Shown one piece after another: positions 273 to 60,099 of a stretch of DNA of 64,000 nucleotides. Below the pieces are notes generated by a model. That model did not search any database and was not told where the DNA came from. It worked only from the letters and a program-made list of their open reading frames with translations. Origin of the DNA: a virus; IMG/VR virus record IMGVR_UViG_3300049491_000955, positions 18,082 through 82,081 of that record; one strand, given 5' to 3'. Position numbers and translations under genes: made by a program. The first letter of the stretch is position 1. Every line of letters begins with the position of its first letter.

Positions 273-818
273 CTAACAACCGACTTGAACGCCAGAAGTC
301 AGTCGATTATTTTGGCGCATCCGCTTCTCCCAACCTGAACTTCCATATTTGAATCGCGCGATCGTCGCTCTAGCTTCATCTAGTTTGAGGCTAGTAACGT
401 TTAAATCGCCTACTAGCTGGACATTCTCTTGCTCTAAATGTTGTATATAAGCGCTTGCACTAGCCAGAGTTGCTTTATCGGTTTTTGCAAAAGCGTAACC
501 CTGGCTTTTCAGCTTTGGGAGCAAATCGCGTTTTAACCAACGTTTAAATTTTTGTGCTGACTCTGACTTTGAAGCAAGAATTAATCCCCATACACCATAC
601 TCAGACACAAACCAAACTGGACTTTTTAGTCCAATGTCAACCAAAGCTCTCTCATCCTCTTCTGTATTGGCAGGAATCGTCAAAGAAGGATTAGAAAATT
701 CTAAAACCTTACAAAGGTGAGAGCCTTGATGCCAGGTCAGTCCTTGTTCATCAACAAAAGATTTTATTTTTGTTTCTGAAAACTGACTCAATACAATTTC
801 TATTTCATTTGAAGTCAT
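273..818 (-). CDS. Bro-N domain antirepressor-like protein
   Basis: The N-terminal ~110 residues read as a BRO family N-terminal domain: short beta strands, a HLCKVLEFSNPS segment, WFVSEYGVWGLILASKSESAQKFKRWL, then LLPKLKSQGY. Bro-N domains bind DNA and are common in phage antirepressors. Residues ~115-150 form a helical, probably coiled-coil segment. The last 15 residues (MRQNNRLTSGVQVGC) are identical to the end of the next Bro gene, although the middle parts differ. The promoter just upstream carries twin inverted repeats, so autoregulation is likely. The exact role (antirepressor or other regulator) is inferred. Confidence 0.8.
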   Translation of the reverse strand: MTSNEIEIVLSQFSETKIKSFVDEQGLTWHQGSHLCKVLEFSNPSLTIPANTEEDERALVDIGLKSPVWFVSEYGVWGLILASKSESAQKFKRWLKRDLLPKLKSQGYAFAKTDKATLASASAYIQHLEQENVQLVGDLNVTSLKLDEARATIARFKYGSSGWEKRMRQNNRLTSGVQVGC

Positions 819-4511: not shown

Positions 4512-5240
4512 ATGGATAAGTTATTCCAAGTTAATGTATTAGCTCAGACGCCAAATCCTCAACAAACAATTTACGCTGCTTTGCATCAAGACTATAACTC
4601 AAATTATGTTTGGGATGAATGGCAGAAAGAAGGTTTCCCATCTGAAGAGAAGTGCGGAGAGATTGCAGTAAAAAGATTGCTTGAGGGCGATGCCGGACAC
4701 TGGGGAGCTATAGAACATCCACAAATAATCTTTAGCACTGGTTATTTTCCTCACTCTGCTATGCAGCAGTTACGTACACACAGGAATATCTCCTTCGATG
4801 TTCAATCTTTTCGTTACACTTCTGATAAAGTAATAGCTGTTGCTGAAGATAAACTTGACGTAGAGAAAGTGTTTTATTTGCGACCTGTTGGCGACTATAC
4901 AGACAGACAAGGAGCTAAATATCACTATTCTAGTCAATGGCGAGAAAATGATTTACTCGCTAGGCGGATGGCAGCAAAGGAATACAAATACAATATAAGC
5001 CAAGGGATGAGCGAAGAACATGCTAGAGGTGGCTTGTCTTTCGATTATCGCCAGCATTTTGTCGTCAGTTGTAATGCTCGTGCTTTTCTTCACTTGGCTG
5101 ACTTAAGAGCCAAAAAGAATGCTCAATTAGAATGTCAACAATTTATTGAGCTATGTTGGCCACATTTTGAGAAATGGTGTCCAGCGATCGCAGACTACTA
5201 CAAAAAACATCGTTACGGCAAAGCGAGGTTGGCTCCTTGA
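4512..5240 (+). CDS. thyX: Flavin-dependent thymidylate synthase ThyX
   Basis: The 242-residue protein shows the ThyX layout: EGDAGHWGAIEHPQ (58-71), then QQLRTHRNISFDVQSFRY (85-102) and, near the C-terminus, a DLRAKKNAQLECQQF helix matching the R-x-A-Q-x-E region. The signature RHR-x7-S is present as THR-x7-S (T89-H90-R91, S99), with an arginine displaced by one position. It converts dUMP to dTMP using FAD, NADPH and methylenetetrahydrofolate. Together with dcd it would make dTTP independently of the host. Because a thymine-hypermodification-family gene lies at 56.4 kb, an unusual product such as a hydroxymethylated pyrimidine is conceivable, but nothing here proves it. Confidence 0.9.
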   Translation: MDKLFQVNVLAQTPNPQQTIYAALHQDYNSNYVWDEWQKEGFPSEEKCGEIAVKRLLEGDAGHWGAIEHPQIIFSTGYFPHSAMQQLRTHRNISFDVQSFRYTSDKVIAVAEDKLDVEKVFYLRPVGDYTDRQGAKYHYSSQWRENDLLARRMAAKEYKYNISQGMSEEHARGGLSFDYRQHFVVSCNARAFLHLADLRAKKNAQLECQQFIELCWPHFEKWCPAIADYYKKHRYGKARLAP

Positions 5241-5245
5241 TCAAT

Positions 5246-5527
5246 ATGCAAATTTCTTCTGACTTCTCTCAACTTCTGTCTCAACTTCTTTTAGCTTTAA
5301 GCGTTTTTCTTTTAGCTCTTTTAGCTCACAATATGCGTAGTAGAATTAAAGCTTTAGAAATAGAGCAGAAGAAGCTCAAGAAAAGAGTTTCTAACTTGAT
5401 TCTTGCTACTACTGAAGAAGCTTTAAACTCGTTTAGTGACATTGAAAAAGATTTTGATGACTGGGTAGAATTGCTAAGTCCTCCAAATCAATCTAAAGAT
5501 TCGGCAAAGTCTAGTAAAGAAAGCTAG
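5246..5527 (+). CDS. Small membrane-anchored coiled-coil protein
   Basis: The ATG at 5246 lies 5 nt after the thyX stop; the longer frame starting inside thyX is unlikely. The product (93 residues) begins MQISSDFSQLL, has a membrane helix (LLLALSVFLLALLAHN), then a charged coiled coil (RIKALEIEQKKLKKRV) and an acidic C-terminus. A TTG at 5237 that overlaps the thyX stop is an alternative start. Its function is unknown; a single helix plus cytoplasmic coiled coil is common in small phage membrane proteins. Confidence 0.6.
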   Translation: MQISSDFSQLLSQLLLALSVFLLALLAHNMRSRIKALEIEQKKLKKRVSNLILATTEEALNSFSDIEKDFDDWVELLSPPNQSKDSAKSSKES

Positions 5528-19941: not shown

Positions 19942-20658
19942 TTATCTATAAAATTCTATAGCTTCTGCAATTGCCAATTTTGGCTCCAAACCTCTATCAG
20001 TCAGTCGCATAGCGTAATCCTCAATTCTATCTATCAACCTCAGGTTGGCTTCGTCGTGAGTGTCGCGCAACGTTTCTTTGGTACATCCTCGTTCTTCGCA
20101 AAGTTGTTTAGCTTTCTTGCCAAATAACGCCAGATTCAAGGTATCAGAAACATTGATGTAGATCCATTGGCGGTAGTTATCAGATACTTCGTGAGTATTT
20201 ACGTAGTCAGCGATCGCTTGCGTCCACGTCCTTCTAGATACTTTTCCGGCTATCCTGGACTTAAACCTTTCGTTTCTTTCTGCTTCAGTCCTAACCTTGC
20301 CAAACACAATATCAGCACGGCGCTCAATGGCTTCTGTGGCTGATGCAACTAACAAAGCAATTGCTTTTAGATTTCCTTTGGCAGCCAAAGCTCCCCAAAT
20401 GGCAGATGCCTGCTCAATAGTTAAAGGTTTAATTTTACTTATACCCTTAAAATGAATCGGCGGCTTAAGACTTTCCATGCACGGTAAGCTGTCTAGCTTT
20501 TCTGACCGAAGAAAGCGCGGATAGTTTTTATTTATGACATCAACAGCTTCAAAGACTTGATCTTGCGAAAGAATATAACTTCCATCCTCTAGCTGGAAGA
20601 CATCTAAGGGGATGTTACCAAGATGAATCGTGACACGAATAACGCTACCATTAGACAT
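19942..20658 (-). CDS. Modular antirepressor-like protein, shared C-module family (member 1)
   Basis: A 238-residue protein with an N-terminal beta module (VIRVTIHLGNIPLDVFQLEDGSYIL), a helical middle and the C-module shared by five genes in this window: RRTWTQAIADYVNTHEVSDNYR, LALFGKKAKQLCEERGC, LRDTHDEANLRLIDRIEDYAMRL, DRGLEPKLAIAEAIEFYR. The C-module is helical and may mediate DNA binding or oligomerisation. The gene is inserted between the K-like and I-like tail genes on the opposite strand, with its own promoter, structured leader and terminator: a self-contained cassette. Function unknown; Bro/KilA-like antirepressor by analogy with the KilA-N member at 55.4 kb. Confidence 0.75.
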   Translation of the reverse strand: MSNGSVIRVTIHLGNIPLDVFQLEDGSYILSQDQVFEAVDVINKNYPRFLRSEKLDSLPCMESLKPPIHFKGISKIKPLTIEQASAIWGALAAKGNLKAIALLVASATEAIERRADIVFGKVRTEAERNERFKSRIAGKVSRRTWTQAIADYVNTHEVSDNYRQWIYINVSDTLNLALFGKKAKQLCEERGCTKETLRDTHDEANLRLIDRIEDYAMRLTDRGLEPKLAIAEAIEFYR

Positions 20659-22260: not shown

Positions 22261-25200
22261 ATGGATTTAGGTACGTTAGAAATTAATTTTATTGGCAGCT
22301 TTCAACAATTAGATCGGGACATTGCAAGAGCAAAGACGATCGCAACTCAAGCTGCCAAAGAAATAGAGTCCAGCTTTAAGAATACAAACTTCAAAATAAC
22401 GGTTAACGATTCCGCATTATCTTCTTTAAATAAACACTTAGACTTCAAAAAAATACATTTTCAGCAAGTACAACAGTACTTCAATCAGAATCCTTTAACT
22501 GTTAAAGTTGACGATACCTCTTTAACAAAATTAAACAAAGAACTAGACATTATTACTAAACAGAGAGACGTAGTAGTAAATGTAAAAGCTAACATTAGGC
22601 AAGAAGCAGAACTAGTAGGAACAGAAGTAGGACAACAAGTAAAAAAATCTTTATCTAATTCTTTCAAAGGACTTGGAAAGGAAGTAAAAGACGCAGTTAG
22701 TTTAAACTCTGGCATTACTCTAGGTATTGGTCAGCTATTTGGATCAATGCTTGGAAGTCAAATGATTTCTGGATTGAAAAGAAATTTAGGAGTAGATGTA
22801 AAAGCTGCGATAGGAAGTATTTTTGATACTGCCGCAAAACCTTTAAAAGTCTTTGTTGTGGACAACCAAGACTTGAAAGCATCTATAAATAAAGCTGGAG
22901 TCTTATTAGAAGAACGCTTTGAGTCCGCAGGGTATAAAGTAGGGGAAGCAATTATAGCCTCTCTAGAGTCAAAAGCTAGCACGATTGAAGGCAAGTTTAA
23001 TGCCTTTACCAAAGAATTAATTGATCCAAATAAATTTCAGTCACAACTTTCAACGCTTAAAAAAGATATTGTTGACATATCTTCCGACGTAAAAGGATCT
23101 CTTTTTAACAAGCAAGCTTCTCAAGAATTCTTTGGTGGATTAGGCGAAAAGATTTCAAGCAGACGAGAGAAAGGATTACAGACTCGTGCTGTTCCACTTG
23201 TTAGAGAAAGAGCTTTACAAATTTTAGAAGAAAATAAAGCAAGAAATAGTGCCAATGCTGTTACTTCTGAGACAGAGCAAATTTATATTGCTACTGGCGG
23301 CTATGCGGGAGCAAGAGGACTAAGTGGAAAGAGACTAGCTGGAGACTTGAAGAAACAAATCAGTGCAAATGATTTAGCAATTTGGGTAAAAAATGACGAT
23401 ACAGATTTACCTAAAGAAGCTATGTCAAAAGCAAAAGAGAAGGCGATCGCTTTAATGACATCTATGGCAAAGCCACATTTGCGTGGTTATTCAAAAGATG
23501 CTATAGAAATGGCTGCTCAAGCGATGGCTGCATTGGAGAAAAACCCCAATGTTAAAGTAAAATTTTTAGGAGAAAGTGGAGGAGGCTTTGCAGCAGAAGA
23601 AGCCGAAAAGATTGTAAGTTTGATGGGATATGGACAGAAAGCTGATTATCTTGGTGTAGGAACTCCTCAATTTATTGGTGGACTGGATTCAAGAAATAGA
23701 AAGATTATTTCTCCCGATGAAACACTTGGCGCAGAAACTCATAAAATGTATGCCAAGCTAGGATTAGCTAATGTCTCTAGTTCTCAACAAAACATACTCG
23801 GCGTTTTTGGACATCCTTACGAAAATTACAAAGAAGCTGGAATAGCTGAGTTACAAAACTTCATTCAAGGAATGCCAAAGCGCTTTACAAGCGAAGATAT
23901 TTCTGGAGCCAAAGGAGCGGCACAAGCTTTTAAAGCGCATGATTTGAAGAAGCTTGACTCTAAGCAATTAGAGAAGTTCTCAGAACAAGCTTTTGCTAAT
24001 TTACAAATGATTCGTAGACAAATTCTTGTTGCAACAACAGAGACGAGACAAGAACTTGAAGAAATAGCAAAAGATTTTGAGGATGTTTACGTTGCTTCTG
24101 CGCCTGAAAGCAGGGAATTTACACAAGCAAGAGAAACGATCGCTAAAGCTCAAAATATTTATAAGCATTTAGTACCTCAAGCTGGACTCGCCGCAGCTAA
24201 GGTAGGACAAGAACTTGCAAAAGAATTAGAATCTCATCAAAAAGAATTTGCTAAAGTTGGTGGACAATACAGCGGTACTTATGGAAGAAAATATCAAAGC
24301 ATTAACTCTGAGATGAGTGACTTGATTGCAAAGCTTCAAGCTACTGAATTGGGAGTTAAAAAAGCAGAAGTAAAAATTCCTTTAACTATTCCGAATGTTC
24401 CTGAGAAAGCTTTTGTTGAACAATCAGCAAAGCAAGTTAGTCAAGCCGTTGCAGAAACAGCAAAGCAAGTTATAGAGAATACTAAAAAAGAGATAGTAAA
24501 AGCTCAGCAGACTTCACCAAACACAGACAAAATAAAAACTCAAATAGCTGCTATTCAAGAAGCAATTAAAAAATCTCAAGGTTATTTGGCAGGAACTCCT
24601 GAACTTTCTTCTGCTTATATTGACACAATCTTAAAAGTAGTTCCTGAGATTCAGAAACAATTAAATGAAGCAATTCAAAGCTTGCCAACAGAAGAAAGAA
24701 TGTCTTCTGAGCTAGGAGTGCAATTAGCCAACCTAAAATCTCAGATTCCTTCTATGCAGAAGCGAGTTGCAGAGATAGTTAAAAACCTAAACAAAGATAT
24801 TACTCGTGTTGCTAGTGGAGAACCTAAAGATTCAATTAAGTCTTTAGGAAATGTTTTCACCGAACAATTAAGAACAGCAAAACAGTTTGGACAAGGATCT
24901 ACTCAGGGCGATGCTTTAGCTAAGGATGTTCTTGCTGCAACAGAAAAAGCTCGTCAGTCTATAAGTGATCTACTCGTCTCTTTTGGGCAAGATGTTCCTG
25001 AAGTTATCAAAAAAGCAGCCAAAATTGCTAGACAGCAAATAACAACATCAGAAAAAGGCGCAAAAACTTTTCTTGGTGAAGCTAAAACAGCCGGACTCGA
25101 TACAGGTGCTGGTTTTAATGAAGGATTAAAGCAATCCATTGCTAATGTTCAGAAATCTGCTCAAGCTATGGCACAAATTGCTATAGATGTGACAGAAGAA

Positions 25201-28200
25201 ACCTTAGAAATTCAATCGCCTTCAAAAGTGTTTGAAAGAATAGGTCGTTTTGTCGGACAAGGTTTTAAGCAAGGTTTAGATACAATAGGACAAATCAATT
25301 TTAAGCAACTCTTTCAAGATTTAATCGATTCTCCTGCTGATTCAATAGATAAATTACTTGGAAATTTCTCTAAACTTTCTGGCGCGGCGAAAGCAATCGC
25401 TGTTGCTTTTGCAGGATTTACTGTTTTTCAGCTTTTTGGATCTCAATTAATAGATTTTGGTAGATCAACTAGTCAGGTTGCAAGTAATCTAGAAAATCTA
25501 GAACGACGCATTAAATTTGTTTCTAACAGCAGCGCAGACGCCAATAAAAACTTAGAATTCTTCCGTGGTAATGCCAAACGCTTAGGCTCTGATATCTCTA
25601 CATCCTTGACTCAAGGTGGAGCCTTTGCCGCAGTAACCCGTGGAAGCTCTTTAGAGGGCGATCCAACCAGAAGAATAGTAGGAGCCGTTCAACAAGCTTC
25701 TACTGTCTTGGGAGCAACCCCAGAGCAACAAGAACGCGGTTTGTTAGCACTTCAACAAATGGCAGGAAAAACAATCGTATCTCAAGAAGAGTTACGACAG
25801 CAATTAAGTGAGGCTATTCCTGGTGCAGCGCAAGTGGCGGCAAGGGCTTACGGGTTGACTACCCAAGAAATGAATCAACTGATAGAGAAGGGTCAGATTC
25901 TTGCAGAAGATTTTCTGCCAAGACTAGCACAACAATTATCAATCGAGACTTCTGCTGGCTTGCCCGGCGCGCTCAAAACTTCCGTTTATGCAATGGGTCG
26001 CTTTAAGAATGCAACATTAGAAGCTCAAGAATCAATTGGCAAATTAGCTTTACCATTGCAAACATTCTCTTTAAATGTTTTGAGTGGCGGAATTGAAAAA
26101 CTTACGGGTATGCTACCTCTACTGATAAACGGTTTTCAGTTCTTTATTCTGCTCATTACAAAACCTTTTTGGTTCCCAATTATTCAAGGCTTATTCTCAA
26201 TACAAGCAAATACATTACTTACAGGAATATCTTTCAAAACATTGGGAGCAAGTATTGCAACTTTCTCTGCTACCGCTCTTACTGCATTGGCTCCTTTGTT
26301 ACTTCAGTTCTTAGCTTTTGAAGCAGTTATCTTGATATTTTCTGCGCTAAAAGAACAGTATCAAGACTTCGCTTCAAGCATTAGAGATAATACTAAGCAG
26401 ATTAATCAATCTATTGATGAGCTAAACAAATCTTTAAACAAAGTTGGGACAGGAGCCGCTAAGCCTCTTGCTGGGAATACTGAAGAACTTAGGCAGCGAT
26501 TAGCTTACGAGTATAACGATAAAATCCAGAAAAATCCTTTCTCGGTTTTCTCAACTACTCGTGTACCTGTTCAGATAAAAGAACTTGAAGATTATTTGTC
26601 AGCTTCCAAAGAACTGTTAGCAACCTCTCAAAGATTAAAGAAAGAATCAGAGTCATCTACGTCAACAAAAGCTATCAGTGATCTAAAACTTTTGGATGCA
26701 GAATATCAACGTGTCCAAAATAGACGCAGAGGATTAGAGGTCAACAATCCTGGTGATGCCAAAGGGCGGGAAGCTTTAATAGCGCAAGAACAAGACTTGC
26801 TTAGAAAACGCGAAGAAGCAAACAGGACTCCAACAACTTATCAAACGGCTTATGCTACTCAGGCAAAAACAATCAAAGATTTGATTGAGCTTATGGAGGA
26901 GCAGAAGAAAAAAGGTGTTGTTACCGCAGAGAGCGAAATTCAATTACAGAAACTTAAGAAAGGCTTGGTTGAAGTAACAGAAAAACAAGAGTATTTTGCA
27001 AAATCTACCCGTTCATCTCAAAGCAGTCTGCTTGAATTTGAGCGCAGTTTTGCAAGACTAGATGCTTCCTTGGAGGGAACAAAGTCTAGGCTTGAATCTC
27101 TATCCAATATATCAAAAGTTACTTTGCAGTCTCAGGAAGCTTCTGGGGCAATCACGCCTGGGCAAAATGCGTTCACTGACTCGCTAAAACAACAAGAGCA
27201 GATATCTAAACAAGTTGCTGCAAACATCTCTGTTATCCGTCAGAAATACGCAGAGTTGAACAACCAAAATGCGTTGCAAGTATTAAATGACTTAGGTATT
27301 GACAAAAACTCAACTTCTGCCGAACTTAAAGGAAGAGCGGAAGAAAATCAAGCCAATCCCCAAGTCAAATCAGTCCTCGAAAAACTTGCACAAGTTAGGG
27401 ATTTAGAAGCCGAAACATATAGGCTAAATGCTCAACAAGCAGAACAACAAAACAATCTTGTTAAGCAAATATACGATTCAAATAAAGCCGTCTTAGAATA
27501 CTATCAATCAATTCAAAGGCAGACTCAAGAGTTAAGTATTGCAGCCCAAGAAGCAGCCCAGACAATTAAATTAACTAATGTTAAGTCTAAATTAAAAGCA
27601 GCAATTTCGGGCACTCAAGATAATTTTGTTAACCAATTTGTTGACTCTATCGTTCAGATAACTGAATCTTTGGGACAGATTGCTAATGAAGAAATCCAAG
27701 CTAAACGCCAAATCTTACAAAATGAAAACGCTTACAAAGACATCATTAAACAAGGCGTTGACCTAAATCGAAATCTTCCAGGACTAGCGCCGGGTGCAAC
27801 AGTTGGTAGCTACACTGGAGGCTACAATCAATCTCTAGTCTTTCCAATAGGAGGAAGAAATAATTCTACTATTAGTAGCGGTTATGGCGATCGCGTTCAT
27901 CCGATAAGCGGCAAACACAAGTTTCATGATGGTGTAGATTATCCCGCGCCAATTGGCACGTCTGTTGTTAGTCCAATGGCAGGTGTTGTTGTTGGGGTCA
28001 AATATGAAGCTCGTGGCGGAGGTAAATATGTAGTTATTGAATCGCTGGATTCCAAAGGGCAGAAAGTAGAGCATACTTTTATGCACTTAGATCAGCAGAT
28101 GGTGAAAGAAGGACAACAAGTAGCCGCTGGGCAACAAGTAGGAACTGTCGGCAATACTGGCGGTTCAACTGGTCCACACTTGCATTACAGAACTAGAATC

Positions 28201-30546
28201 AATGGGCGATCTGTAAATCCTATTGATTTCCTGAAATCTGGTACTCTTGGAGCCGGTGGCGGAGGCGGACAAATTCAAACTTCTTCTCCTAGTCCTTATA
28301 CTGGCAGCACCAAAGCTTCTTTCTATGGCGCAGGAGATGGATTTGATGGGAAGCCTACAGCTAGCGGGGAAACATTTGATCAAAATAAAATGACTGCTGC
28401 TATCAACGAAACCCTTCGTAAGCAGCTTGGACTAAATTTTGGCACTCAAGTTCAAATCACAAACCCAGCTACCGGACAATCCGTCGTTGTCCGAGTGAAC
28501 GATCATGGCCCATATGAAAAAAAAGGAGGAAAGTTTGTTCCCCACAGTACTCGCGGCTTTGATTTAAGCACGTCTGCCGCGCGGGCGATCGGTTTAGACA
28601 AGGTTGGCGTAGGCAATGTAAACTTCCGTGTACTTGGGCAAGGCGGCGCAACCGGTTCTCCTAACTTGAATAACTCTAGAGCTTATTCTTCTGCCAGTGG
28701 TTTGGCACAAGGGCAATCGAATCCTGGTGGTGTAATGATTGGCGCAGGAGGGAAAGTTGCTTTGGATAACTTGAATCAACAGAATGCCCAAGTTATTGCC
28801 AAATTTGAAGGAAGTCGGAAGCTTGCCCAACTTGATGCCGAAAGAAACGCTCGCCGTGCTCAGTCTCAATTAGAAACTAATCGAATTGAAAATCTTCGTA
28901 GTACAAAAGCTACACAAAGAAATTTGGAAGATTCCAGCTTGGGACTGGGCTATCAAACTTATGGAGTCGAAGCGACTCGACAAGCGATCGCAGTTGAACG
29001 CAAGTATGAAGATCAGGTACAGCAACTTCAAGAGCAACGCGTCAAACAGCAAGAAGCAATAGATACTGCTGAAAGTACTTTGGCTGTGCTGAGATCTAGT
29101 ACAGACGCAGAGATACCTTACAGAAAAGAATACATTCAGAAATTAGAAAAACTTCTTCCTTCTGTTAAAGCAGTTTTGGGACAGATTAACAAACAAATTC
29201 TTGATAGCGCAGAAGCAGAAAGCAAAGAGATTGGAGATATAGAAAAGAAAAGCTATGAAGCTGAAATGATTCGCTTGGGCGAAGCAAAGGACAACTACAG
29301 TCAAGGTAGATCTGAAATACTAAAACGTAATGCCGCCAATCGACGCACTTTAGCAGAAAGAAGTAGATTAAGTATTCCTGATTTGTTTGCTACTTTGGAT
29401 GCAGAGAAAGAAGCAGCATCCCTTGATGCTAGTGTCGCTTACAACTCAACCATTAGGGCTATTGATGAGCAAATAAAAAAAGAAATCAACAAAGATATTC
29501 TTAAGTTATTAAACAGCAGAAAAGCTCAAGCCTTTGCTTCTTTATTAAAAGCTCCAAGGGAAGCTCAGCAACGCTTTGATCGAGAACTCCTTGATAGACA
29601 ACTTACAGAAAGAGGAGAGCACGAAGGACGATTAGATAAAATTTCTGAGTCTAGAAAATCTCTTTTATCGGCTGGCTCTCAATACTTAGGTCGATTCAAT
29701 CTTGGCACAATTGCAAATCCTCTGAACAAGAAAATTGCTCAGATGGGTGCTGAGGATGAATATAGAAGAGGCTCACTAGAAATAGAGCAATTAGCAGCCT
29801 CTGGTAAATATTCTAATGAGCAATTATCCGAGCTACGCAAGAATCTAGAAAGCTTGAATACTATCAAGCTGGAAAATATTCGGGCTGAATTTGATGTATG
29901 GACTGGGGTAATGGAATCGACTAAAGGGCAATTTGAAGGCTTCTTTGGCAGTATGATTCGAGGAACTGCAAGCATTGGAGAAGCTTTTTCAAATCTTATT
30001 GGCGGTATCGCTGATAATCTTGCCAATCTTGCAGCCCAATACCTAACCAATGAAATCTTTGCTTCTATATTTGGGATTTCTAATAAGCCAGCTATTCAAG
30101 AATCCGGAGGAGGTGGATTACTTGGCGGAGGAATTGGTGGCATACTTGGCGGATTACTCGGCTTTGCTAATGGCGGTGAAATTGGCAATTATGCTAATGG
30201 TGGGATTATTGGGGCGATGCAGCGTGAACGGGCAATGACAGGGCGACGCGCTCACTTAATTGTAGCTTCCGAAGGAGAGCGTATTCTAAATCACAAAGAA
30301 GCGCAGATTTGGAATAAAATTACCGGGAGGCTTAATTTTGCTTCTGGTGGCATGATCGGAGCAGACGCGGGCACTCTTTCTGCTAGCGCTGGCGTTGGTG
30401 GGGGACTTACAATCAATGTTCCAATAAATGTTGGCAGTGAATCCAAAGGTGCTTTTGATAAGGGCAAAGAAGCCGCCCTTAAACAAGCAATTATCGCTAC
30501 AGTCGTAAACGAAAGGCGTCCAGGTGGCAGTTTATACCAAGTTTAA
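22261..30546 (+). CDS. Giant tape-measure protein with M23 and RlpA-like domains
   Basis: At 2761 residues this is the tape-measure protein. Domains in order: helical N-terminus; an alpha/beta-hydrolase-like region around 340-530 with a G-E-S-G-G nucleophile elbow (S439); helical repeats with SPSKVFERIGRF (about 986); a tape-measure domain (about 1070-1260); hydrophobic helices (about 1280-1365); coiled coils; an M23 endopeptidase (about 1860-1985; H1889, D1893, H1973-x-H1975); an RlpA-like double-psi barrel (about 2017-2125; D2081 in VRVNDHGPY); more coiled coil; and a Gly-rich C-terminal helix region. It sets tail length and should cut peptidoglycan during DNA entry. From the usual ~0.15 nm per residue, the tail could reach roughly 400 nm, less if the enzymatic domains do not span it. 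It is far from the chaperone genes. Confidence 0.92.
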   Translation: MDLGTLEINFIGSFQQLDRDIARAKTIATQAAKEIESSFKNTNFKITVNDSALSSLNKHLDFKKIHFQQVQQYFNQNPLTVKVDDTSLTKLNKELDIITKQRDVVVNVKANIRQEAELVGTEVGQQVKKSLSNSFKGLGKEVKDAVSLNSGITLGIGQLFGSMLGSQMISGLKRNLGVDVKAAIGSIFDTAAKPLKVFVVDNQDLKASINKAGVLLEERFESAGYKVGEAIIASLESKASTIEGKFNAFTKELIDPNKFQSQLSTLKKDIVDISSDVKGSLFNKQASQEFFGGLGEKISSRREKGLQTRAVPLVRERALQILEENKARNSANAVTSETEQIYIATGGYAGARGLSGKRLAGDLKKQISANDLAIWVKNDDTDLPKEAMSKAKEKAIALMTSMAKPHLRGYSKDAIEMAAQAMAALEKNPNVKVKFLGESGGGFAAEEAEKIVSLMGYGQKADYLGVGTPQFIGGLDSRNRKIISPDETLGAETHKMYAKLGLANVSSSQQNILGVFGHPYENYKEAGIAELQNFIQGMPKRFTSEDISGAKGAAQAFKAHDLKKLDSKQLEKFSEQAFANLQMIRRQILVATTETRQELEEIAKDFEDVYVASAPESREFTQARETIAKAQNIYKHLVPQAGLAAAKVGQELAKELESHQKEFAKVGGQYSGTYGRKYQSINSEMSDLIAKLQATELGVKKAEVKIPLTIPNVPEKAFVEQSAKQVSQAVAETAKQVIENTKKEIVKAQQTSPNTDKIKTQIAAIQEAIKKSQGYLAGTPELSSAYIDTILKVVPEIQKQLNEAIQSLPTEERMSSELGVQLANLKSQIPSMQKRVAEIVKNLNKDITRVASGEPKDSIKSLGNVFTEQLRTAKQFGQGSTQGDALAKDVLAATEKARQSISDLLVSFGQDVPEVIKKAAKIARQQITTSEKGAKTFLGEAKTAGLDTGAGFNEGLKQSIANVQKSAQAMAQIAIDVTEETLEIQSPSKVFERIGRFVGQGFKQGLDTIGQINFKQLFQDLIDSPADSIDKLLGNFSKLSGAAKAIAVAFAGFTVFQLFGSQLIDFGRSTSQVASNLENLERRIKFVSNSSADANKNLEFFRGNAKRLGSDISTSLTQGGAFAAVTRGSSLEGDPTRRIVGAVQQASTVLGATPEQQERGLLALQQMAGKTIVSQEELRQQLSEAIPGAAQVAARAYGLTTQEMNQLIEKGQILAEDFLPRLAQQLSIETSAGLPGALKTSVYAMGRFKNATLEAQESIGKLALPLQTFSLNVLSGGIEKLTGMLPLLINGFQFFILLITKPFWFPIIQGLFSIQANTLLTGISFKTLGASIATFSATALTALAPLLLQFLAFEAVILIFSALKEQYQDFASSIRDNTKQINQSIDELNKSLNKVGTGAAKPLAGNTEELRQRLAYEYNDKIQKNPFSVFSTTRVPVQIKELEDYLSASKELLATSQRLKKESESSTSTKAISDLKLLDAEYQRVQNRRRGLEVNNPGDAKGREALIAQEQDLLRKREEANRTPTTYQTAYATQAKTIKDLIELMEEQKKKGVVTAESEIQLQKLKKGLVEVTEKQEYFAKSTRSSQSSLLEFERSFARLDASLEGTKSRLESLSNISKVTLQSQEASGAITPGQNAFTDSLKQQEQISKQVAANISVIRQKYAELNNQNALQVLNDLGIDKNSTSAELKGRAEENQANPQVKSVLEKLAQVRDLEAETYRLNAQQAEQQNNLVKQIYDSNKAVLEYYQSIQRQTQELSIAAQEAAQTIKLTNVKSKLKAAISGTQDNFVNQFVDSIVQITESLGQIANEEIQAKRQILQNENAYKDIIKQGVDLNRNLPGLAPGATVGSYTGGYNQSLVFPIGGRNNSTISSGYGDRVHPISGKHKFHDGVDYPAPIGTSVVSPMAGVVVGVKYEARGGGKYVVIESLDSKGQKVEHTFMHLDQQMVKEGQQVAAGQQVGTVGNTGGSTGPHLHYRTRINGRSVNPIDFLKSGTLGAGGGGGQIQTSSPSPYTGSTKASFYGAGDGFDGKPTASGETFDQNKMTAAINETLRKQLGLNFGTQVQITNPATGQSVVVRVNDHGPYEKKGGKFVPHSTRGFDLSTSAARAIGLDKVGVGNVNFRVLGQGGATGSPNLNNSRAYSSASGLAQGQSNPGGVMIGAGGKVALDNLNQQNAQVIAKFEGSRKLAQLDAERNARRAQSQLETNRIENLRSTKATQRNLEDSSLGLGYQTYGVEATRQAIAVERKYEDQVQQLQEQRVKQQEAIDTAESTLAVLRSSTDAEIPYRKEYIQKLEKLLPSVKAVLGQINKQILDSAEAESKEIGDIEKKSYEAEMIRLGEAKDNYSQGRSEILKRNAANRRTLAERSRLSIPDLFATLDAEKEAASLDASVAYNSTIRAIDEQIKKEINKDILKLLNSRKAQAFASLLKAPREAQQRFDRELLDRQLTERGEHEGRLDKISESRKSLLSAGSQYLGRFNLGTIANPLNKKIAQMGAEDEYRRGSLEIEQLAASGKYSNEQLSELRKNLESLNTIKLENIRAEFDVWTGVMESTKGQFEGFFGSMIRGTASIGEAFSNLIGGIADNLANLAAQYLTNEIFASIFGISNKPAIQESGGGGLLGGGIGGILGGLLGFANGGEIGNYANGGIIGAMQRERAMTGRRAHLIVASEGERILNHKEAQIWNKITGRLNFASGGMIGADAGTLSASAGVGGGLTINVPINVGSESKGAFDKGKEAALKQAIIATVVNERRPGGSLYQV

Positions 30547-46365: not shown

Positions 46366-46623
46366 TTAAGGGGTGTCACCCCTCACAGTGTATGGAATTT
46401 TTTGTGATATGGAGCGAAGGTCGGGTTTATCTTCTTCGGTGAAAGAAGGCTTGCACTCAATTTCAAATTTTAATTCTACTTTTTTTATCAAAATACTTGC
46501 CAGATAAATAGCTTCATCGGCTAAGGCGTAAGGAGGAGTCTTTTTGTTTTTTGGACTGGCTACCAATCCTTGTAGAATTCTGCTGGCAACTTCTAAAAAT
46601 TGGCTCTGTGAATCTTGATTCAT
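46366..46623 (-). CDS. Small hypothetical protein, 85 residues
   Basis: Helical N-terminus (SQSQFLEVASRILQGLVASPKNKKTPPYALADEAIYLASILIKK) with a polar, acidic C-terminus. It is divergent from the first tandem modular gene, whose promoter overlaps its upstream region. No family is recognised. Confidence 0.5.
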   Translation of the reverse strand: MNQDSQSQFLEVASRILQGLVASPKNKKTPPYALADEAIYLASILIKKVELKFEIECKPSFTEEDKPDLRSISQKIPYTVRGDTP

Positions 46624-46631
46624 TGCAGATA

Positions 46632-46729
46632 TGCTAGAATATTTTGATACCCAGTAAAGCAGGATCTGCTGATAACATTTCCTGCCTTGATTTCACTGGG
46701 ACTTACCTAACTAACAGGCAAGCATATTT
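46632..46729 (+). promoter_or_regulatory. Promoter and structured leader, tandem copy 1
   Basis: Extended -10 TGCTAGAAT (46632-46640); outer helix CCCAGT (46650-46655) / ACTGGG (46695-46700); inner hairpin GCAGGA (46659-46664) / TCCTGC (46680-46685); conserved ACTTACCT and GGCAAGC before the ATG. Confidence 0.65.
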
Positions 46730-47482
46730 ATGTTAACAGTTCGTTTGGAAACCATCAAGTATGGTGGTTGGGATTCTTTGGAAGTTGCCATTGATATCAA
46801 TCAGGTTGATGGCAAAACGTTGTATGTGACTTATCCGACTGCCGAGACTATTCTCAATTACAGAGAAAACTCCGTCAGGGAAAAAGTAGCATCTAAATCC
46901 TTCAAACTCTTTCTAGGAGAAGGTTTGCCGCTAGGGAAATTCTCTGGTTCTATTGTCAATAAGCTAGGTTTGTCAGGCGCTAGAGCAAAAGTCAATTTGA
47001 TTGAGCTGAGTGACTTGATCAAATTAGCAGCATGGGAAGCTAGTAACGGAAATACTGCAATCGCCAAACTACTTGCAATTGGGTTTGGTGATTCTTTGAG
47101 GTCGTTGGCTTATGAGCAGCTTGGCATTGAAATTACTGCTGAAGATCGTCAAAGTTGGATTAAATCTCGCTTTGTAGGTAAACAAACTCGTAGAACTTGG
47201 ACAGATGCAGTCAGTGATTACATTAATAATAACGAAGTTTCAGAGAACTACAGAACATGGGTCTACAAGCACGTTTCTGATTCAGTTAATGTGGCGTTGT
47301 TTGGAAAGAAAGCCAAGCAATTGTGTGAAGAAAGGAAGTGCGATCGCGATAGTTTGCGCGATACTCACGATGAAGCTAGCCTCAGGTTGATAGACAGAAT
47401 TGAGGACTACGCCATGCGATTGATTGATAGAGGTTTGGAGCCTAAGCAAGCGATCTTAGAAGCGATTGATTTCTACAAGTAG
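46730..47482 (+). CDS. Modular antirepressor-like protein, shared C-module family (member 2)
   Basis: 250 residues. The N-module (MLTVRLETIKYGGWDSLEVAIDI ... TYPTAETILNYRENSVREKV) and middle helices differ from the next gene, while the C-module (RRTWTDAVSDYINNNEVSEN, FGKKAKQLCEERKCDRDSL, LRDTHDEASLRLIDRIED, RLIDRGLEPKQAILEAIDFY) is nearly identical to it at the DNA level. It is a regulator candidate by similarity to the KilA-N member at 55.4 kb. Own promoter, leader and terminator. Confidence 0.75.
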   Translation: MLTVRLETIKYGGWDSLEVAIDINQVDGKTLYVTYPTAETILNYRENSVREKVASKSFKLFLGEGLPLGKFSGSIVNKLGLSGARAKVNLIELSDLIKLAAWEASNGNTAIAKLLAIGFGDSLRSLAYEQLGIEITAEDRQSWIKSRFVGKQTRRTWTDAVSDYINNNEVSENYRTWVYKHVSDSVNVALFGKKAKQLCEERKCDRDSLRDTHDEASLRLIDRIEDYAMRLIDRGLEPKQAILEAIDFYK

Positions 47483-47487
47483 CGAAC

Positions 47488-47518
47488 AAAAAGCCCGGTC
47501 AATTAACCGGGCTTTTTT
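47488..47518 (+). terminator. Rho-independent terminator
   Basis: AGCCCGGT/ACCGGGCT stem with A-run before and T-run after. Confidence 0.85.
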
Positions 47519-47540
47519 AATCAATTTTTCTTTGCAGATA

Positions 47541-47639
47541 TGTTAGAATATTTTGATACCCAGCAAGGCAGGATCTGCTGATAACATTTCCTGCCTTTGA
47601 TTTTACTAGGACTTACCTAACTAACAGGCAAGCATATTT
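47541..47639 (+). promoter_or_regulatory. Promoter and structured leader, tandem copy 2
   Basis: Extended -10 TGTTAGAAT; outer helix CCCAG / CTAGG (one mismatch); the inner hairpin extends to 9 bp (AAGGCAGGA/TCCTGCCTT) by changes relative to copy 1. ACTTACCT and GGCAAGC are conserved. Confidence 0.6.
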
Positions 47640-48389
47640 ATGTTAACAGTTCGCAAGACCACTATCAATATTAGTGGCATCGAAATCGACGCTTATACCG
47701 CTGACGAACAGGACAAGCAAGGTAGACCAGTAAATTATTTATCAGGACAGGGAATAGCCTTGAGTATAAATTTACTCCACACTTCGACTGTGCAAAGTAG
47801 AATGTCTCAGGAGCTAAAAACTAGACTGGGAGCAGGTTTTTCTACTGTGCAAGGAAAGTGTAATACTACTGAGAACGCGAAGAATCTTGTATCAAAAATA
47901 TCTTTATGGACAGTTACCAATGCAATCAAGTATTGGCAGTACCATGGAAAACAAGGTAATACAAAAGCGCAAGATATTTTATCTGCCTTGGCAGAGACTG
48001 CGCTAGACATTGTTATTAATGACGCTTTTGGAAAGGATTACGAAAAAGGTCAAGCCCAAACTTGGACTAAATCTCGTTTTGCAGGCAAACAAACTCGTAG
48101 AACTTGGACTGATGCAGTCAGCGATTACATTAATAATAATGAAGTTTCAGAAAACTACAGAACGTGGGTCTACAAGCACGTTTCTGATTCAGTTAATGTG
48201 GCGTTGTTTGGGAAGAAAGCCAAGCAATTGTGTGAAGAAAGAAAGTGCGATCGCAATAGTTTGCGCGATACTCACGATGAAGTCAGCCTGAGGTTGATAG
48301 ACAGAATTGAGGATTACGCGATGCGATTGATTGATAGAGGACTGGAACCTAAACAGGCAATCGCAGAAGCAATTAATTTCTACAAGTAG
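47640..48389 (+). CDS. Modular antirepressor-like protein, shared C-module family (member 3)
   Basis: 249 residues. The first five codons match member 2, then the N-module is unrelated (TTINISGIEIDAYTADEQDKQG, IALSINLLHTSTVQSRMSQEL). From about residue 137 the sequence rejoins member 2 with only a few differences. This is what an exchange of the N-terminal cassette between conserved leader and conserved C-module would leave. Regulator candidate; target unknown. Confidence 0.75.
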   Translation: MLTVRKTTINISGIEIDAYTADEQDKQGRPVNYLSGQGIALSINLLHTSTVQSRMSQELKTRLGAGFSTVQGKCNTTENAKNLVSKISLWTVTNAIKYWQYHGKQGNTKAQDILSALAETALDIVINDAFGKDYEKGQAQTWTKSRFAGKQTRRTWTDAVSDYINNNEVSENYRTWVYKHVSDSVNVALFGKKAKQLCEERKCDRNSLRDTHDEVSLRLIDRIEDYAMRLIDRGLEPKQAIAEAINFYK

Positions 48390-55095: not shown

Positions 55096-55287
55096 ATGCA
55101 AAAAGAACAAAGAATTGATTACGACGGAGCAACAATTGTTATTGAAAAATACGCTTCTGGCTACGCATACAGCGTCGATAGTGCATTTGTTAGCGATATG
55201 GCTGGAAGATTCAAAACTGCTGAAGAAGCGATAGAAGCAGCAAAAAAAATGGTTGAGGAATCTCTTGTTCAGATTGATCCAACTTAA
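55096..55287 (+). CDS. Small alpha/beta protein, 63 residues
   Basis: IDYDGATIVIEKYASGYAYSVD followed by KTAEEAIEAAKKMVEES: two strands and a helix, the layout seen in the proteins at 30894 and 21857. Own consensus promoter with TATACTATAG. Function unknown. Confidence 0.6.
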   Translation: MQKEQRIDYDGATIVIEKYASGYAYSVDSAFVSDMAGRFKTAEEAIEAAKKMVEESLVQIDPT

Positions 55288-55299
55288 TCTCTCTGTTTA

Positions 55300-55391
55300 C
55301 TGACTTTACACAGCCAAAATGATATACTAACAAAATAGCCCGCAGATAGTTCAAAGTATCTGCGGGCTTTGCACAAACCTAGCAACAGGAA
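55300..55391 (+). promoter_or_regulatory. Promoter and 5' hairpin leader of the KilA-N gene
   Basis: CTGACT (55300-55305), 17-bp spacer, TATACT (55323-55328). The transcript would start near the base of a 12-bp hairpin (AGCCCGCAGATA 55337-55348 / TATCTGCGGGCT 55357-55368), so the mRNA begins with a structured element. Copied at 56145-56290. Confidence 0.6.
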
Positions 55392-56141
55392 ATGTACATG
55401 TCCATTATCTTGCATAACTATCAAAATAGTCAAATTAATCAACTTGCTGAAGATACCTTGATCGCTGGAAAGTTGATTCCTAAAGGCTATGTCAATGCTA
55501 CGCAGATGTGTCAAGCAAATAAGAAGCGTTTGGACCACTACTTAGAGAACCAAAAAACTAAAGCCTTTCTGGAGGCGACTTCCACCGTTACCCGGATTTC
55601 CGGGGAGCGGCTAATTATACCAGTTATCGGTGGAAACGATAAGCAAATTCAAGGAACATGGTTTCATCCTAACGTTGCAAACAATTTAGCTCAGTGGATA
55701 TCACCCACTTTTGCGGCATGGTCTGCTGAAGTTTTAACTCGTGTTCTTCAAGGTGATTATCTAGCACTAACCGCAGAAGCTCAGCAAGCTGAAGCCAAAC
55801 TACAAGAAATTTGGGACAGACTACGTTTATCAGGTAAAGTAACTCGCAGAACTCTAACTGATTCCATTAAAGATTATTGTTTTCGTCACGACAAGTCCCT
55901 AAACTACCAAATATTTATTTATCCAAACGTCTCGGATTGTTTGAATGTTGCATTGTTTGGAAAGAAGGCTAAACAGTTGTGTGAAGAACGTCAGTGTGAT
56001 CGAGATTGCTTACGAGACACTCACGCGGAAGCTGATCTGAAAAATATAGATCACGTAGAAGCAAATGCTATGAAATTAATTGATAGACGAGATGTTGAAC
56101 CGTTGGAAGCCATGAGGCAAGCGATCGCACTTTATCTTTAA
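55392..56141 (+). CDS. KilA-N + shared C-module protein (family member 4)
   Basis: 249 residues. The N-terminal ~115 residues form a KilA-N domain (IPKGYVNATQMCQANKKRLDHYL, GTWFHPNVANNLAQWISPTFAAWSAEVL). The C-terminal part is the shared module (RRTLTDSIKDYCFRHDKSLNYQ, ALFGKKAKQLCEERQCDRDC, LRDTHAEADLKNID, EAMRQAIALYL). KilA-N proteins are DNA-binding phage regulators, often antirepressors. This member links the module family to known biology. Confidence 0.8.
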   Translation: MYMSIILHNYQNSQINQLAEDTLIAGKLIPKGYVNATQMCQANKKRLDHYLENQKTKAFLEATSTVTRISGERLIIPVIGGNDKQIQGTWFHPNVANNLAQWISPTFAAWSAEVLTRVLQGDYLALTAEAQQAEAKLQEIWDRLRLSGKVTRRTLTDSIKDYCFRHDKSLNYQIFIYPNVSDCLNVALFGKKAKQLCEERQCDRDCLRDTHAEADLKNIDHVEANAMKLIDRRDVEPLEAMRQAIALYL

Positions 56142-56144
56142 TCT

Positions 56145-56309
56145 CTCTGTCTACTGATTCTACACAGCCAATTTACACAGCGAAAATGATATACTAACAA
56201 AATAGCTCGCAGATAGTTCAAAGTATCTGCGGGCTTTGCACAAGCCTAGCAACAGGAAATGTACATGTCCATTATCTTGCATAACTATCAATTATTGACA
56301 AACATGTAG
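56145..56309 (+). pseudogene. Decayed duplicate of the KilA-N gene start
   Basis: Promoter, hairpin and first eleven codons (MYMSIILHNYQ) of the preceding gene are repeated nearly exactly, then the frame ends after five more codons (stop at 56307-56309) at the TTGACA promoter of the next gene. It looks like a duplication cut short by deletion. Confidence 0.7.
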
Positions 56310-56357: not shown

Positions 56358-57299
56358 ATGACAGAATTACTTGACCTTTATCGTTTCTTTGTTCATCATC
56401 GCCAACAAACTTTAATTGCTAAGCTAAGCAATCCTTTTCATGTTAGTAACTTGCTCTTACACAATAAATTCACGAATGTTCAAAGAATCTTTGATAGGGT
56501 TAGTCAGTATGAGCTTAAAAATGTTTTGTATACAGGTGATCAAACTCCAGTTGAAGTGTTAAAGCGCATTTTTTTGTTTAATCAATTTAAAACCTCAGTG
56601 TTTTGGGAAAGCTATTCTTCCTATAAAGAAGACATGTATCTAAATAGTTTTTCTTTTGAAGACTTTAACAATTATTTCTTAAAGTCTTCTGGTTCTTCTA
56701 AGATGTTTACAAACGCCTATGTTGTTCCTGGAAAGTCAGGAGAGAGCAAAGGACAGACTATACACAATAGATGTTTGCAACTTAATGCGTATGAAGAAAC
56801 TTTGCAAAAAGCTGTTAATTTACAAAGAATTGATTTGCTTTTTGATACGCTTAAAATTCTTCCTGGCATTGGAGATTTTCTGGCTTCTCAAGTATGTTTT
56901 GATTTTCTTTGGCATAGTTCAACTAAAGATTGGAAGCCATTATATGTTTTAGGCACAGGCGCAATCAGAGGAGCAACAAAGTTAAGCTTAATACAAGCCG
57001 CTAAGCCAAATAAATTTGATTGCATGGCTGCTTTAAACCAAGCTTTTGAGTATGTAATAGAAGATTATCCTTTTTTGTCTGCTAACGGAGTTAAAATTTA
57101 TCCCAACATTGCAGACATTCAAAATACGTTCTGTGAATCCGACAAGTTTCTAAGGCTAGTTCGTCCCGACTTAAAGACAAGCAATACTGCTCCTACTCGC
57201 ATCAAAAACGTTTACAAGCCTAAAGAAGCCATTGATTACTGCGTTCCCGGACACTGGGTCAACAGTGCATCAACTCTTGTTCCGATTGACCAAACTTAA
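56358..57299 (+). CDS. Thymine hypermodification-family protein (HMUDK-helical/aGPT-Pplase-like)
   Basis: 313 residues. The N-terminal NPFHVSNLLLHNKFTNVQRIFDRVSQYELKN and VLKRIFLFNQFKTSVFWESYSS resemble the signatures (x-T-N-x-x-R-x-x-D-R-x-S-x-Y ... hFxxFN) of the 5-hmdU DNA kinase helical domain and alpha-glutamyl/putrescinyl thymine pyrophosphorylase families. A helix-hairpin-helix-like LPGIGDFLASQVCFDFLW lies at about 169-187. Those proteins belong to thymine-hypermodification pathways in phages. With dcd and thyX nearby, the phage may carry altered thymine, or this may be a solo DNA-binding relative. No catalytic residues can be confirmed. Confidence 0.6.
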   Translation: MTELLDLYRFFVHHRQQTLIAKLSNPFHVSNLLLHNKFTNVQRIFDRVSQYELKNVLYTGDQTPVEVLKRIFLFNQFKTSVFWESYSSYKEDMYLNSFSFEDFNNYFLKSSGSSKMFTNAYVVPGKSGESKGQTIHNRCLQLNAYEETLQKAVNLQRIDLLFDTLKILPGIGDFLASQVCFDFLWHSSTKDWKPLYVLGTGAIRGATKLSLIQAAKPNKFDCMAALNQAFEYVIEDYPFLSANGVKIYPNIADIQNTFCESDKFLRLVRPDLKTSNTAPTRIKNVYKPKEAIDYCVPGHWVNSASTLVPIDQT

Positions 57300-59349: not shown

Positions 59350-60099
59350 ATGGCTAACAGCATTATAACAGCTACCGTCGCCTTGGTTCCAGTTGGGCAT
59401 TTAACCATAGAAGGTTTGATGGATGAAGAAGGGAAATATTACGTTGCAGTAACGCAATTTAATCAACTGATAAGTTTCAGTGCATCCAATAACACTATAT
59501 CAAGGGACTTGAAACGTCTACTAGGAGAGAGTTTTAGTCCATCCAAGGCTAAAACTAATCTATATAAACAGCTTATCAATGTTTTCAGTATTGAACAGTT
59601 TGAGCTTGCTTTGACAAAATTAGATAGACTTGGCAATCAAAAAGCACAAGAGTTTAGAGATCAACTGGTTGGATTGTCTTTGCATCAATTATTTTCAGAT
59701 GCATTTAGTGTCAAATTTGAAAAAGAAGAACGTCAAGGATGGATCAAAAAACGCCAAGAAAATATAGATTCTTTTTGGTTAATTGGGGAAGCAACGGAAT
59801 TATACAAAAGCAGACATTCTGAATTATCTCAAAATACTCTGAAATTCATGTATCCTAATTACCAAGACGCGATTAATCGTGGTTTGTTTGGAAAAACTGC
59901 CAAGCAAATTAGAGAAATTCTTGGATTGTCCGACAAGAATAAATTGAATCGTGACCATTACGGAAAGAAAGCACTTGTTAATATTGAATCGATACAACGT
60001 TTAGCGGCACAATTAATCAATCAAGACAAATTGCCGTTAGATGCGGTTAAGCAGGCGTTAAGCTTGTACAGCTACCCGGTGATTGACTTTCTAGACTAG
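59350..60099 (+). CDS. Diverged shared C-module protein (family member 5)
   Basis: 249 residues. N-module ATVALVPVGHLTIEGLMDEEGKYYVAVTQ, helical middle, then a diverged C-module (ATELYKSRHSELSQNTLKFMYPN, GLFGKTAKQIREILGL, LNRDHYGKKALVNIESIQRLAAQLI). The key points G-K-x-A-K-Q, NY/N-R-D-H and the helix preceding the C-terminus remain, but the DTH motif became DHY. It shows how far the family can drift. Own promoter, leader and terminator. Confidence 0.7.
   Translation: MANSIITATVALVPVGHLTIEGLMDEEGKYYVAVTQFNQLISFSASNNTISRDLKRLLGESFSPSKAKTNLYKQLINVFSIEQFELALTKLDRLGNQKAQEFRDQLVGLSLHQLFSDAFSVKFEKEERQGWIKKRQENIDSFWLIGEATELYKSRHSELSQNTLKFMYPNYQDAINRGLFGKTAKQIREILGLSDKNKLNRDHYGKKALVNIESIQRLAAQLINQDKLPLDAVKQALSLYSYPVIDFLD

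What the first reader, a model, noticed from the sequence alone, without database searches (positions are those of the whole stretch)
46620..48389. Two tandem genes with swapped N-terminal cassettes between conserved leader and conserved C-module
The genes at 46730 and 47640 share a near-identical 5' leader and first codons, then have unrelated N-modules of about 135 residues, then return to a C-module with only scattered DNA differences. Conservation on both sides of a fully different middle is not what ordinary divergence gives. It suggests recombination-mediated exchange of DNA-binding modules, a way to diversify regulators. Other members at 19942, 55392 and 59350 share the C-module with still other N-modules, one of them KilA-N.
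Basis: partly seen in the sequence, partly recalled or inferred. Interest (0 to 1): 0.85.

Follow-up and report, generated by a model that had tools for sequence, protein, structure and literature searches.

The report
Phage genes swapping self-recognition N-modules
Cyanobacterial phages carry small families of two-part proteins whose front halves are swapped between genes by recombination, and many of those front halves contain a paired DNA repeat with the same 56/57-base spacing as the known BstA 'self-immunity' element, which suggests shuffled self/non-self passwords used in fights between phages.

Summary
Genes 46730 and 47640 share a 95%-identical leader and a C-module (95% aa, 91% nt) around N-modules only about 20% identical. 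The N-modules are remote homologues (hhalign about 97%), not unrelated, and E's C-module is only 31% identical. Modular exchange is well supported beyond this window. Other cyanophage contigs carry the same leader with different N-modules, and a second virus record replicates the B/C pattern. N- and C-trees conflict (AU p 1e-38 to 9e-54); N and C identities are uncorrelated (r=0.11). New: many N-modules (window B approximately, C, E) contain a 9-16 nt direct repeat at exactly 56 or 57 nt. Its sequence differs between genes, it can be out of frame, and it persists in non-gene remnants. BstA's aba self-immunity element has essential direct repeats 56 nt apart; 5 of 6 divergent BstA loci show 56/57 repeats near the start codon, while 63 bacterial KilA-N loci do not. 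Best reading: N-cassettes carry a recognition domain plus its cognate DNA element, shuffled onto shared leaders and C-modules; function probably BstA/aba-like (inferred, untested). The proteins are not BstA members by sequence. Interest high; new variant of a known kind.

The parts
46619..46729 (+). leader of gene B: extended -10-like TATGCTAGAAT, CCCAG...CTGGG hairpin, ACCT..AGG stem near the start codon
   Evidence: 94.4% identical to 47528-47639; alignment; the promoter and hairpin reading is by eye; folding z only -0.9
46730..47482 (+). gene B, 250 aa: N-module class N_B + C-module class C1
   Evidence: phrog_2657 on the C-module
46744..47147 (+). N-cassette of B (class N_B; relatives G3 56% and L171 62%)
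46872..46884 (+). repeat copy V1 of B (CCGTCAGGGAAAA)
   Evidence: 10/13 match to the copy 56 nt downstream; the same position is 12/13 in G3 and 11/13 in L171
46928..46940 (+). repeat copy V2 of B (CCGCTAGGGAAAT), 56 nt from V1
47148..47482 (+). C-module of B (class C1)
47528..47639 (+). leader of gene C
47640..48389 (+). gene C, 249 aa: N-module class N_C + C-module class C1
47654..48056 (+). N-cassette of C (class N_C; relatives G4 50% and L134)
47783..47795 (+). repeat copy V1 of C (TTCGACTGTGCAA)
   Evidence: 12/13 match at spacing 57; exact core ACTGTGCAA
47840..47852 (+). repeat copy V2 of C (TTCTACTGTGCAA)
48057..48389 (+). C-module of C (class C1)
19942..20658 (-). gene A: divergent N-module + C1; antisense between lambda L-like and K-like tail genes; leader related to B/C
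   Evidence: no 56/57 repeat
55392..56141 (+). gene D: KilA-N + C1-like C-module
   Evidence: no 56/57 repeat
56138..56291 (+). second copy of D's leader and first codons without a gene behind it (88%)
59350..60099 (+). gene E: N-module class N_E + C-module class C2
59477..59489 (+). repeat copy V1 of E (TCAGTGCATCCAA)
   Evidence: 11/13 match at spacing 57, best of all spacings tested
59534..59546 (+). repeat copy V2 of E (TTAGTCCATCCAA)

Best explanation
B and C are members of a cyanophage family of two-domain proteins built from exchangeable parts: a shared promoter/leader, an N-cassette (BRO-N-like recognition domain by predicted fold) and a C-module. Shown by comparison: N-cassettes and C-modules have been recombined many times, with breakpoints in the leader/first codons and at the N/C junction, most simply by homologous recombination in the conserved flanks. 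Shown by comparison: many N-cassettes carry inside their coding sequence a direct repeat pair V...V at 56 or 57 nt whose sequence is specific to the cassette and is held at DNA level. Inferred: V...V is the cognate DNA element of the encoded protein and works like BstA's aba: the protein acts against replicating phage DNA, and DNA bearing the matching V pair is exempt. Swapping the N-cassette therefore changes recognition type and self-element together while leader and effector domain stay. Gene-less V...V remnants would be retained immunity elements against other phages' proteins (inferred).
For: Module exchange: N vs C identity r=0.11 over 210 pairs, with extremes both ways (winB/winC 21/94%, G1/G4 15/91%, G3/L171 75/16%, winB/L171 61/12%); AU tests reject shared history; N_B is found with C1, C2 and C3, N_E with C1-C4, N_C with C1 and a KilA-N-type C; leaders shared across N classes (L133/L171 95%, G1/G4 90%, L154/L171 86%). 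DNA-level element: exact repeats of 10 nt or more spike at 56 (10) and 57 (13) against a median of 1 per spacing in 263 kb; 19 of 36 genes have 56/57 as strictly the best of 52 spacing classes; 56 is out of frame, and the same V TTCCTCA encodes FLI at spacing 57 and VPQ at 56; 3 of 4 held-out loci show it; 63 bacterial KilA-N loci do not. BstA link: aba repeats CCCGCC are 56 nt apart and both are required for self-immunity, aba acts as DNA and variant BstAs have cognate aba (PMC8585504); 5 of 6 divergent BstA loci chosen without reference to this have repeats of 6 nt or more at 56/57 near the start, with different sequences, 0 of 200,000 simulations reaching that. Remnants: at least 12 V...V pairs outside intact genes; the L171/L133 remnant pair equals the V of the intact gene L150 in another contig in 23 of 24 positions while the spacer is 28/44.
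Against: No experiment. BstA's N-domain does not match N_E by profile comparison and its C-domain differs; BstA was not among the listed fold hits. aba straddles the start codon whereas V...V lies at about codons 40-66. About half of the family members, and window A and D, lack a clear pair. Other remnant-to-gene comparisons show no excess conservation of V over the spacer. Two of three further E. coli bstA alleles lack an exact 6-nt pair, having one mismatch. The codon-identity count (36/41 vs 14.4 expected) is biased because windows were chosen by nucleotide match.
Confidence: 0.5

Rival explanations
1. Flank homogenisation: B and C are old tandem paralogues whose N-modules simply diverged, and gene conversion within each genome keeps leader and C-module alike. 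No N-module was ever swapped in.
For: C1 modules group by genome (winA/B/C together; G1/G4 together) while N_B and N_C are about 50-56% conserved between phages; tandem copies favour conversion.
Against: It does not explain N_E joined to C1, C2, C3 and C4 or N_B joined to C1, C2 and C3, where C classes are only about 5-30% identical and cannot be converted into one another in place. It may still be the right history for the B/C pair itself.
Confidence: 0.3
2. Antirepressor or transcription regulators: the proteins are BRO-N/KilA-N phage regulators that bind the V pair inside their own gene as an autoregulatory operator.
For: BRO-N and Ant-like fold hits; phrog_2657 is labelled transcriptional regulator; domain shuffling of such regulators is known (Iyer et al. 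2002, cited in PMC6145125).
Against: Does not predict the exact 56/57 spacing shared with BstA, nor retention of pairs in gene-less remnants.
Confidence: 0.2
3. Replication initiator with origin iterons inside its gene (lambda O-like), the N-domain and iterons exchanging together.
For: Known precedent for a DNA-binding domain and its repeats moving together; PLE RepA/Odn domain shuffling driven by iteron recognition (PMC8263062).
Against: Five paralogues in one genome with different V; only two repeat copies; a separate Dda-like helicase/resolvase replication region lies elsewhere.
Confidence: 0.08
4. The V pairs are a by-product of the recombination process (microhomology or small duplication) with no function.
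For: Arrays of remnants bounded by terminators and T-runs suggest frequent illegitimate events.
Against: Fixed 56/57 spacing at a homologous position with many different V sequences and divergent spacers; the same spacing in the experimentally essential aba repeats.
Confidence: 0.12

Closest known systems
BstA / aba (prophage abortive-infection protein with cognate self-immunity DNA element, Owen et al. 2021, PMC8585504)
   Same: Two-domain phage protein with a DNA-binding-type N-domain; direct repeat pair 56/57 nt apart within the locus; repeat sequence differs between variants.
   Different: No sequence match of N-domains by hhalign; different C-domain; repeat pair inside the N-domain codons instead of across the start codon; several paralogues per phage, shuffled modules and gene-less remnant pairs; function untested.
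KilA-N / BRO-N / Ant phage regulators with domain shuffling (Iyer, Koonin, Aravind 2002, as cited in PMC6145125)
   Same: Combinatorial joining of N-domains to shared C-modules; D is KilA-N; B/C/E N-modules have BRO-N/Ant-like predicted fold; the C-module occurs behind KilA-N in hundreds of bacterial genomes.
   Different: No Pfam family covers the N_B/N_C/N_E modules; shared leader DNA; embedded 56/57 repeat pair, which the bacterial KilA-N loci lack.
ICP1 Odn / PLE RepA (domain-shuffled DNA-binding module in phage-satellite conflict, PMC8263062)
   Same: DNA-binding module exchanged between proteins so that sequence recognition moves with it, in a conflict between mobile elements.
   Different: Odn is a nuclease targeting an origin; no nuclease domain seen here.
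Nodularia phage KilA-N proteins (Ravarandavirus, e.g. ALY07463.1)
   Same: KilA-N N-domain 44% overall to window D, related C-module.
   Different: C-module of D is closer to window A/B/C (56%) than to the Nodularia protein (about 35%).

Membership tests
[quoted passage not shown]
   hhalign of 15 N_E modules against 7 BstA N-domains: prob 0.4%, E 0.16; only D touches phrog_6287, through KilA-N
BstA family | BstA C-terminal domain | tested here: not met
   C-modules of all five match phrog_2657, not phrog_6287, in the C-terminal half
BstA family | aba: direct repeat pair with about 56-nt spacing in the locus, variant-specific | tested here: met
   in the window clear for C and E, approximate for B, absent for A and D
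BstA family | blocks phage DNA replication; element rescues own phage | not testable with these tools
   needs experiment
BstA family | frequent position next to a prophage repressor | tested here: not met
   no repressor family among the tested neighbours of B/C
BRO-N / Ant antirepressor N-domains | Pfam/PHROG sequence match | tested here: not met
   no Pfam match over cut-off for 20 members; no PHROG match to the N part of B, C or E
BRO-N / Ant antirepressor N-domains | BRO-N-like fold | tested here: inconclusive
   AF2 model pLDDT 87; BFVD hits mostly BRO-N/Ant, best E 1e-4, others about 2e-3, TM 0.45-0.6
KilA-N | Pfam PF04383 match | tested here: inconclusive
   met for D (3.5e-22), not for A, B, C, E

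The most novel reading that the evidence does not exclude
Cyanophages carry a multi-type self/non-self recognition system in which each protein's specificity domain contains, within its own coding DNA, the 'password' repeat pair it recognises; recombination through shared leaders and C-modules deals these passwords between phages, and gene-less password pairs are kept as stolen immunity. The 56/57-nt repeat rule would unite this family with BstA and predict aba in every BstA variant.
Probability: 0.35. Interest if true: 0.95.

Novelty: new variant of a known kind. Interest (0 to 1): 0.82.

Why it matters
It turns a mosaic gene pair into a testable general rule: direct repeats 56/57 nt apart inside BstA and these cyanophage genes. 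If right, the self-immunity element of any BstA variant can be read from sequence, the specificity of a whole family of phage-phage conflict proteins can be typed, and module exchange between phages gets a concrete reason: recognition domain and cognate DNA element travel as one cassette.

Tried and rejected
Rfam on the window: no match. Leader as a strongly folded RNA: folding z about -0.9 for A, B and C, so not pursued; D and E leaders fold better than shuffles. Leader core as an exact pattern in viral contigs: 13 stretches, not followed. Close relatives with the single C-module of gene C: none. Megablast of 40-64 kb against phages: none. 'N-modules unrelated' rejected by profile comparison. 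V pair as protein-level repeat (FQLSK..FQLSK) rejected because many pairs are 56 nt apart, out of frame. Target-site duplication of a small element considered: unlikely, since the position is homologous across the family. N_E against BstA homology by sequence: not found. PDB fold search of the full-length model: nothing significant; PDB sequences with the N profile: nothing. Orphan pairs in the window: only weak, low-complexity or isolated hits. A direct search of cyanobacterial genomes was not possible (no genome handle; genome scan used).

Full report
1. The observation. Genes B (46730-47482) and C (47640-48389) were re-read and aligned. The leader is 94.4% identical over 126 nt and the identity runs into codon 5 (ATGTTAACAGTTCG); identity resumes near codon 140 and continues to the stop (91.4% nt over 327 nt; dN 0.03, dS 0.39). 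The middle is about 20% identical in protein. This is a true mosaic. Corrections: N_B and N_C are each remote homologues of the N-module of E (hhalign about 97%, E 3e-10 and 8e-10), and E's C-module is only 31% identical to C's. E against C is a useful yardstick: N and C parts are both about 20-30% identical, as ordinary divergence would give.

2. Where it lies. The window is positions 18082-82081 of an 82-kb IMG/VR record with exactly five family members. It is a lambda-like tailed phage (J, K, L-like and tape-measure genes) of a cyanobacterial host: 35 HIP1 sites against 0.28 expected. A sits antisense between the L-like and K-like tail genes, like an inserted independent unit.

3. Module exchange is general. 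Viral-contig scans gave relatives. One record (G001, IMGVR_UViG_3300037325_000356) has four full or nearly full members: G1 N_E+C1, G2 N_E+C3, G3 N_B+C2, G4 N_C+C1. G1 and G4 repeat the B/C pattern independently: leader 90% over 114 nt, C-module DNA 94% over 323 nt, N-modules 15%. Across contigs N_B occurs with C1, C2 and C3; N_E with C1-C4; N_C with C1 and with a Nodularia/KilA-N-type C. N and C identities are uncorrelated (r=0.11, 210 pairs). N data reject the C1 clade (p 1e-38) and C data reject N_B (9e-54) and N_C (3e-43) as clades (these groups were named after seeing the data, and one single-matrix model was used). Leaders are shared across N classes in several contigs. Within one genome, 'swap' and 'flank homogenisation' cannot be separated for B/C; across genomes only exchange explains the combinations.

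4. The repeat pair. In the alignment a short motif recurs about 19 residues apart and changes in step between proteins. At DNA level it is a direct repeat of 9-16 nt at 56 or 57 nt. Over 263 kb of family loci, exact repeats of 10 nt or more number 10 at spacing 56 and 13 at 57, median 1 elsewhere; in-frame multiples of three have modest excesses up to 8, as coding DNA does. Because 56 is out of frame, protein constraint cannot explain it; V TTCCTCA is read FLI in L135 (57) and VPQ in L189 (56). Of 36 genes, 19 have 56/57 as the strictly best of 52 spacing classes; winA, L134, L151, L152, L158, L160, L164 and L185 have no clear pair. Four loci first seen in the last scan served as a held-out set: three have the pair. 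Sixty-three bacterial KilA-N loci with the same type of C-module do not (0 at 56, 1 at 57).

5. Remnants. Pairs also lie outside intact genes: L171 (3774, 4831, 4904, 5023, 5151), L133 (2047, 4441, 4514), L170 (3654, 3754), G001 (L129 reverse complement 2280, 2401) and truncated N-modules (L130 reverse complement 359; L135 3367). L133 and L171 share two of them by descent. One remnant V equals that of an intact gene in another contig (L150) in 23/24 positions with the spacer at 28/44; in the other comparisons V and spacer are similarly conserved, so selection on remnant V is suggested, not shown.

6. The link to BstA. BstA is a prophage abortive-infection protein; aba, 63 bp spanning -29 to +34 of bstA, gives self-immunity as DNA, needs its terminal CCCGCC direct repeats, and is variant-specific (PMC8585504). 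The repeats are 56 nt apart. This was computed after the 56/57 rule had been found in the cyanophage genes. Testing other BstA loci: S107 CCCGCCA 56; Klebsiella RCIP0114 TGGTCA 57; Pseudomonas D14H CCGCCAG 56; CL707 ATCCCT 57; PseuP_222 TTAGGG 57; Azospirillum plasmid CAAGGAAATC 57; Sagittula none. In -60..+120, 7 of 8 loci have a 6-nt or longer pair at 56/57, the next best adjacent spacings 4 and 3 of 8; excluding BTP1 and its near relative 5 of 6, against shuffle rates of 3.5-7% per locus, 0 of 200,000 simulations. Three further E. coli alleles are mixed: 2013C-4538 has GATCGC at 57 where CL707 has ATCCCT; CP53 and ZH063 have one mismatch there.

7. What it is not. N_E does not match BstA's N-domain by profile. 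The AlphaFold model of the N-module (pLDDT 87) resembles BRO-N and antirepressor N-domains in the viral library, weakly (best E 1e-4); the full-length model's best hit is the Nodularia KilA-N protein (3e-9). No Pfam family covers the N-modules. So: it works like BstA/aba at the level of the repeat rule, but it is not filed as BstA.

8. Mechanism proposed. N-cassette = recognition domain plus cognate repeat pair; C-module = effector or partner domain; leader = shared expression signal. Homologous recombination in leader and C-module replaces cassettes. The steps 'protein recognises V pair' and 'V pair exempts own DNA' are inferred from BstA.

Noticed in passing
window 56358-57299 and 4512-5240: 5-hmdU DNA kinase helical domain (PF18723, 2e-43) and a thymidylate-synthase-family protein: the phage may carry hypermodified thymine (inference).
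   Followed up: no
window 55284-55391 and 56138-56291: D's leader plus its first codons is repeated downstream of D (88%) without a gene, just before the 5-hmdU kinase gene; analogous in extent to aba (upstream plus first ~33 nt), but no 56/57 pair was found in D.
   Followed up: partly
L173-L180, L206 (BstA loci): Predicted aba repeat pairs for BstA variants other than BTP1 (TGGTCA, CCGCCAG, ATCCCT, TTAGGG, CAAGGAAATC, GATCGC).
   Followed up: partly
L133 2594-3895: An N_E+C1 gene appears interrupted by a TnpB-like (IS605-type) coding region, read from the sequence by eye; the C1 half resumes at about 3896.
   Followed up: no
G001 (L129/L130): The two ends of the 63.9-kb record share 121 identical bases, so it is probably a complete circular map; 100-220 bp dispersed repeats (80-92%) lie between genes.
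   Followed up: no
L136 3734-4189: Short in-frame fusion of an N_E front to the last ~60 residues of C1, an apparent internal deletion.
   Followed up: no
L129 reverse complement 4946-5278: Stand-alone 110-aa protein that looks like an N-domain alone (BRO-N/KilA-N-like by eye).
   Followed up: no
window 273-818 (minus): Anti-repressor Ant-like protein (phrog_2899 and others).
   Followed up: no
window 22261-30546: 2761-aa tape-measure protein with peptidase/endolysin-type matches.
   Followed up: no
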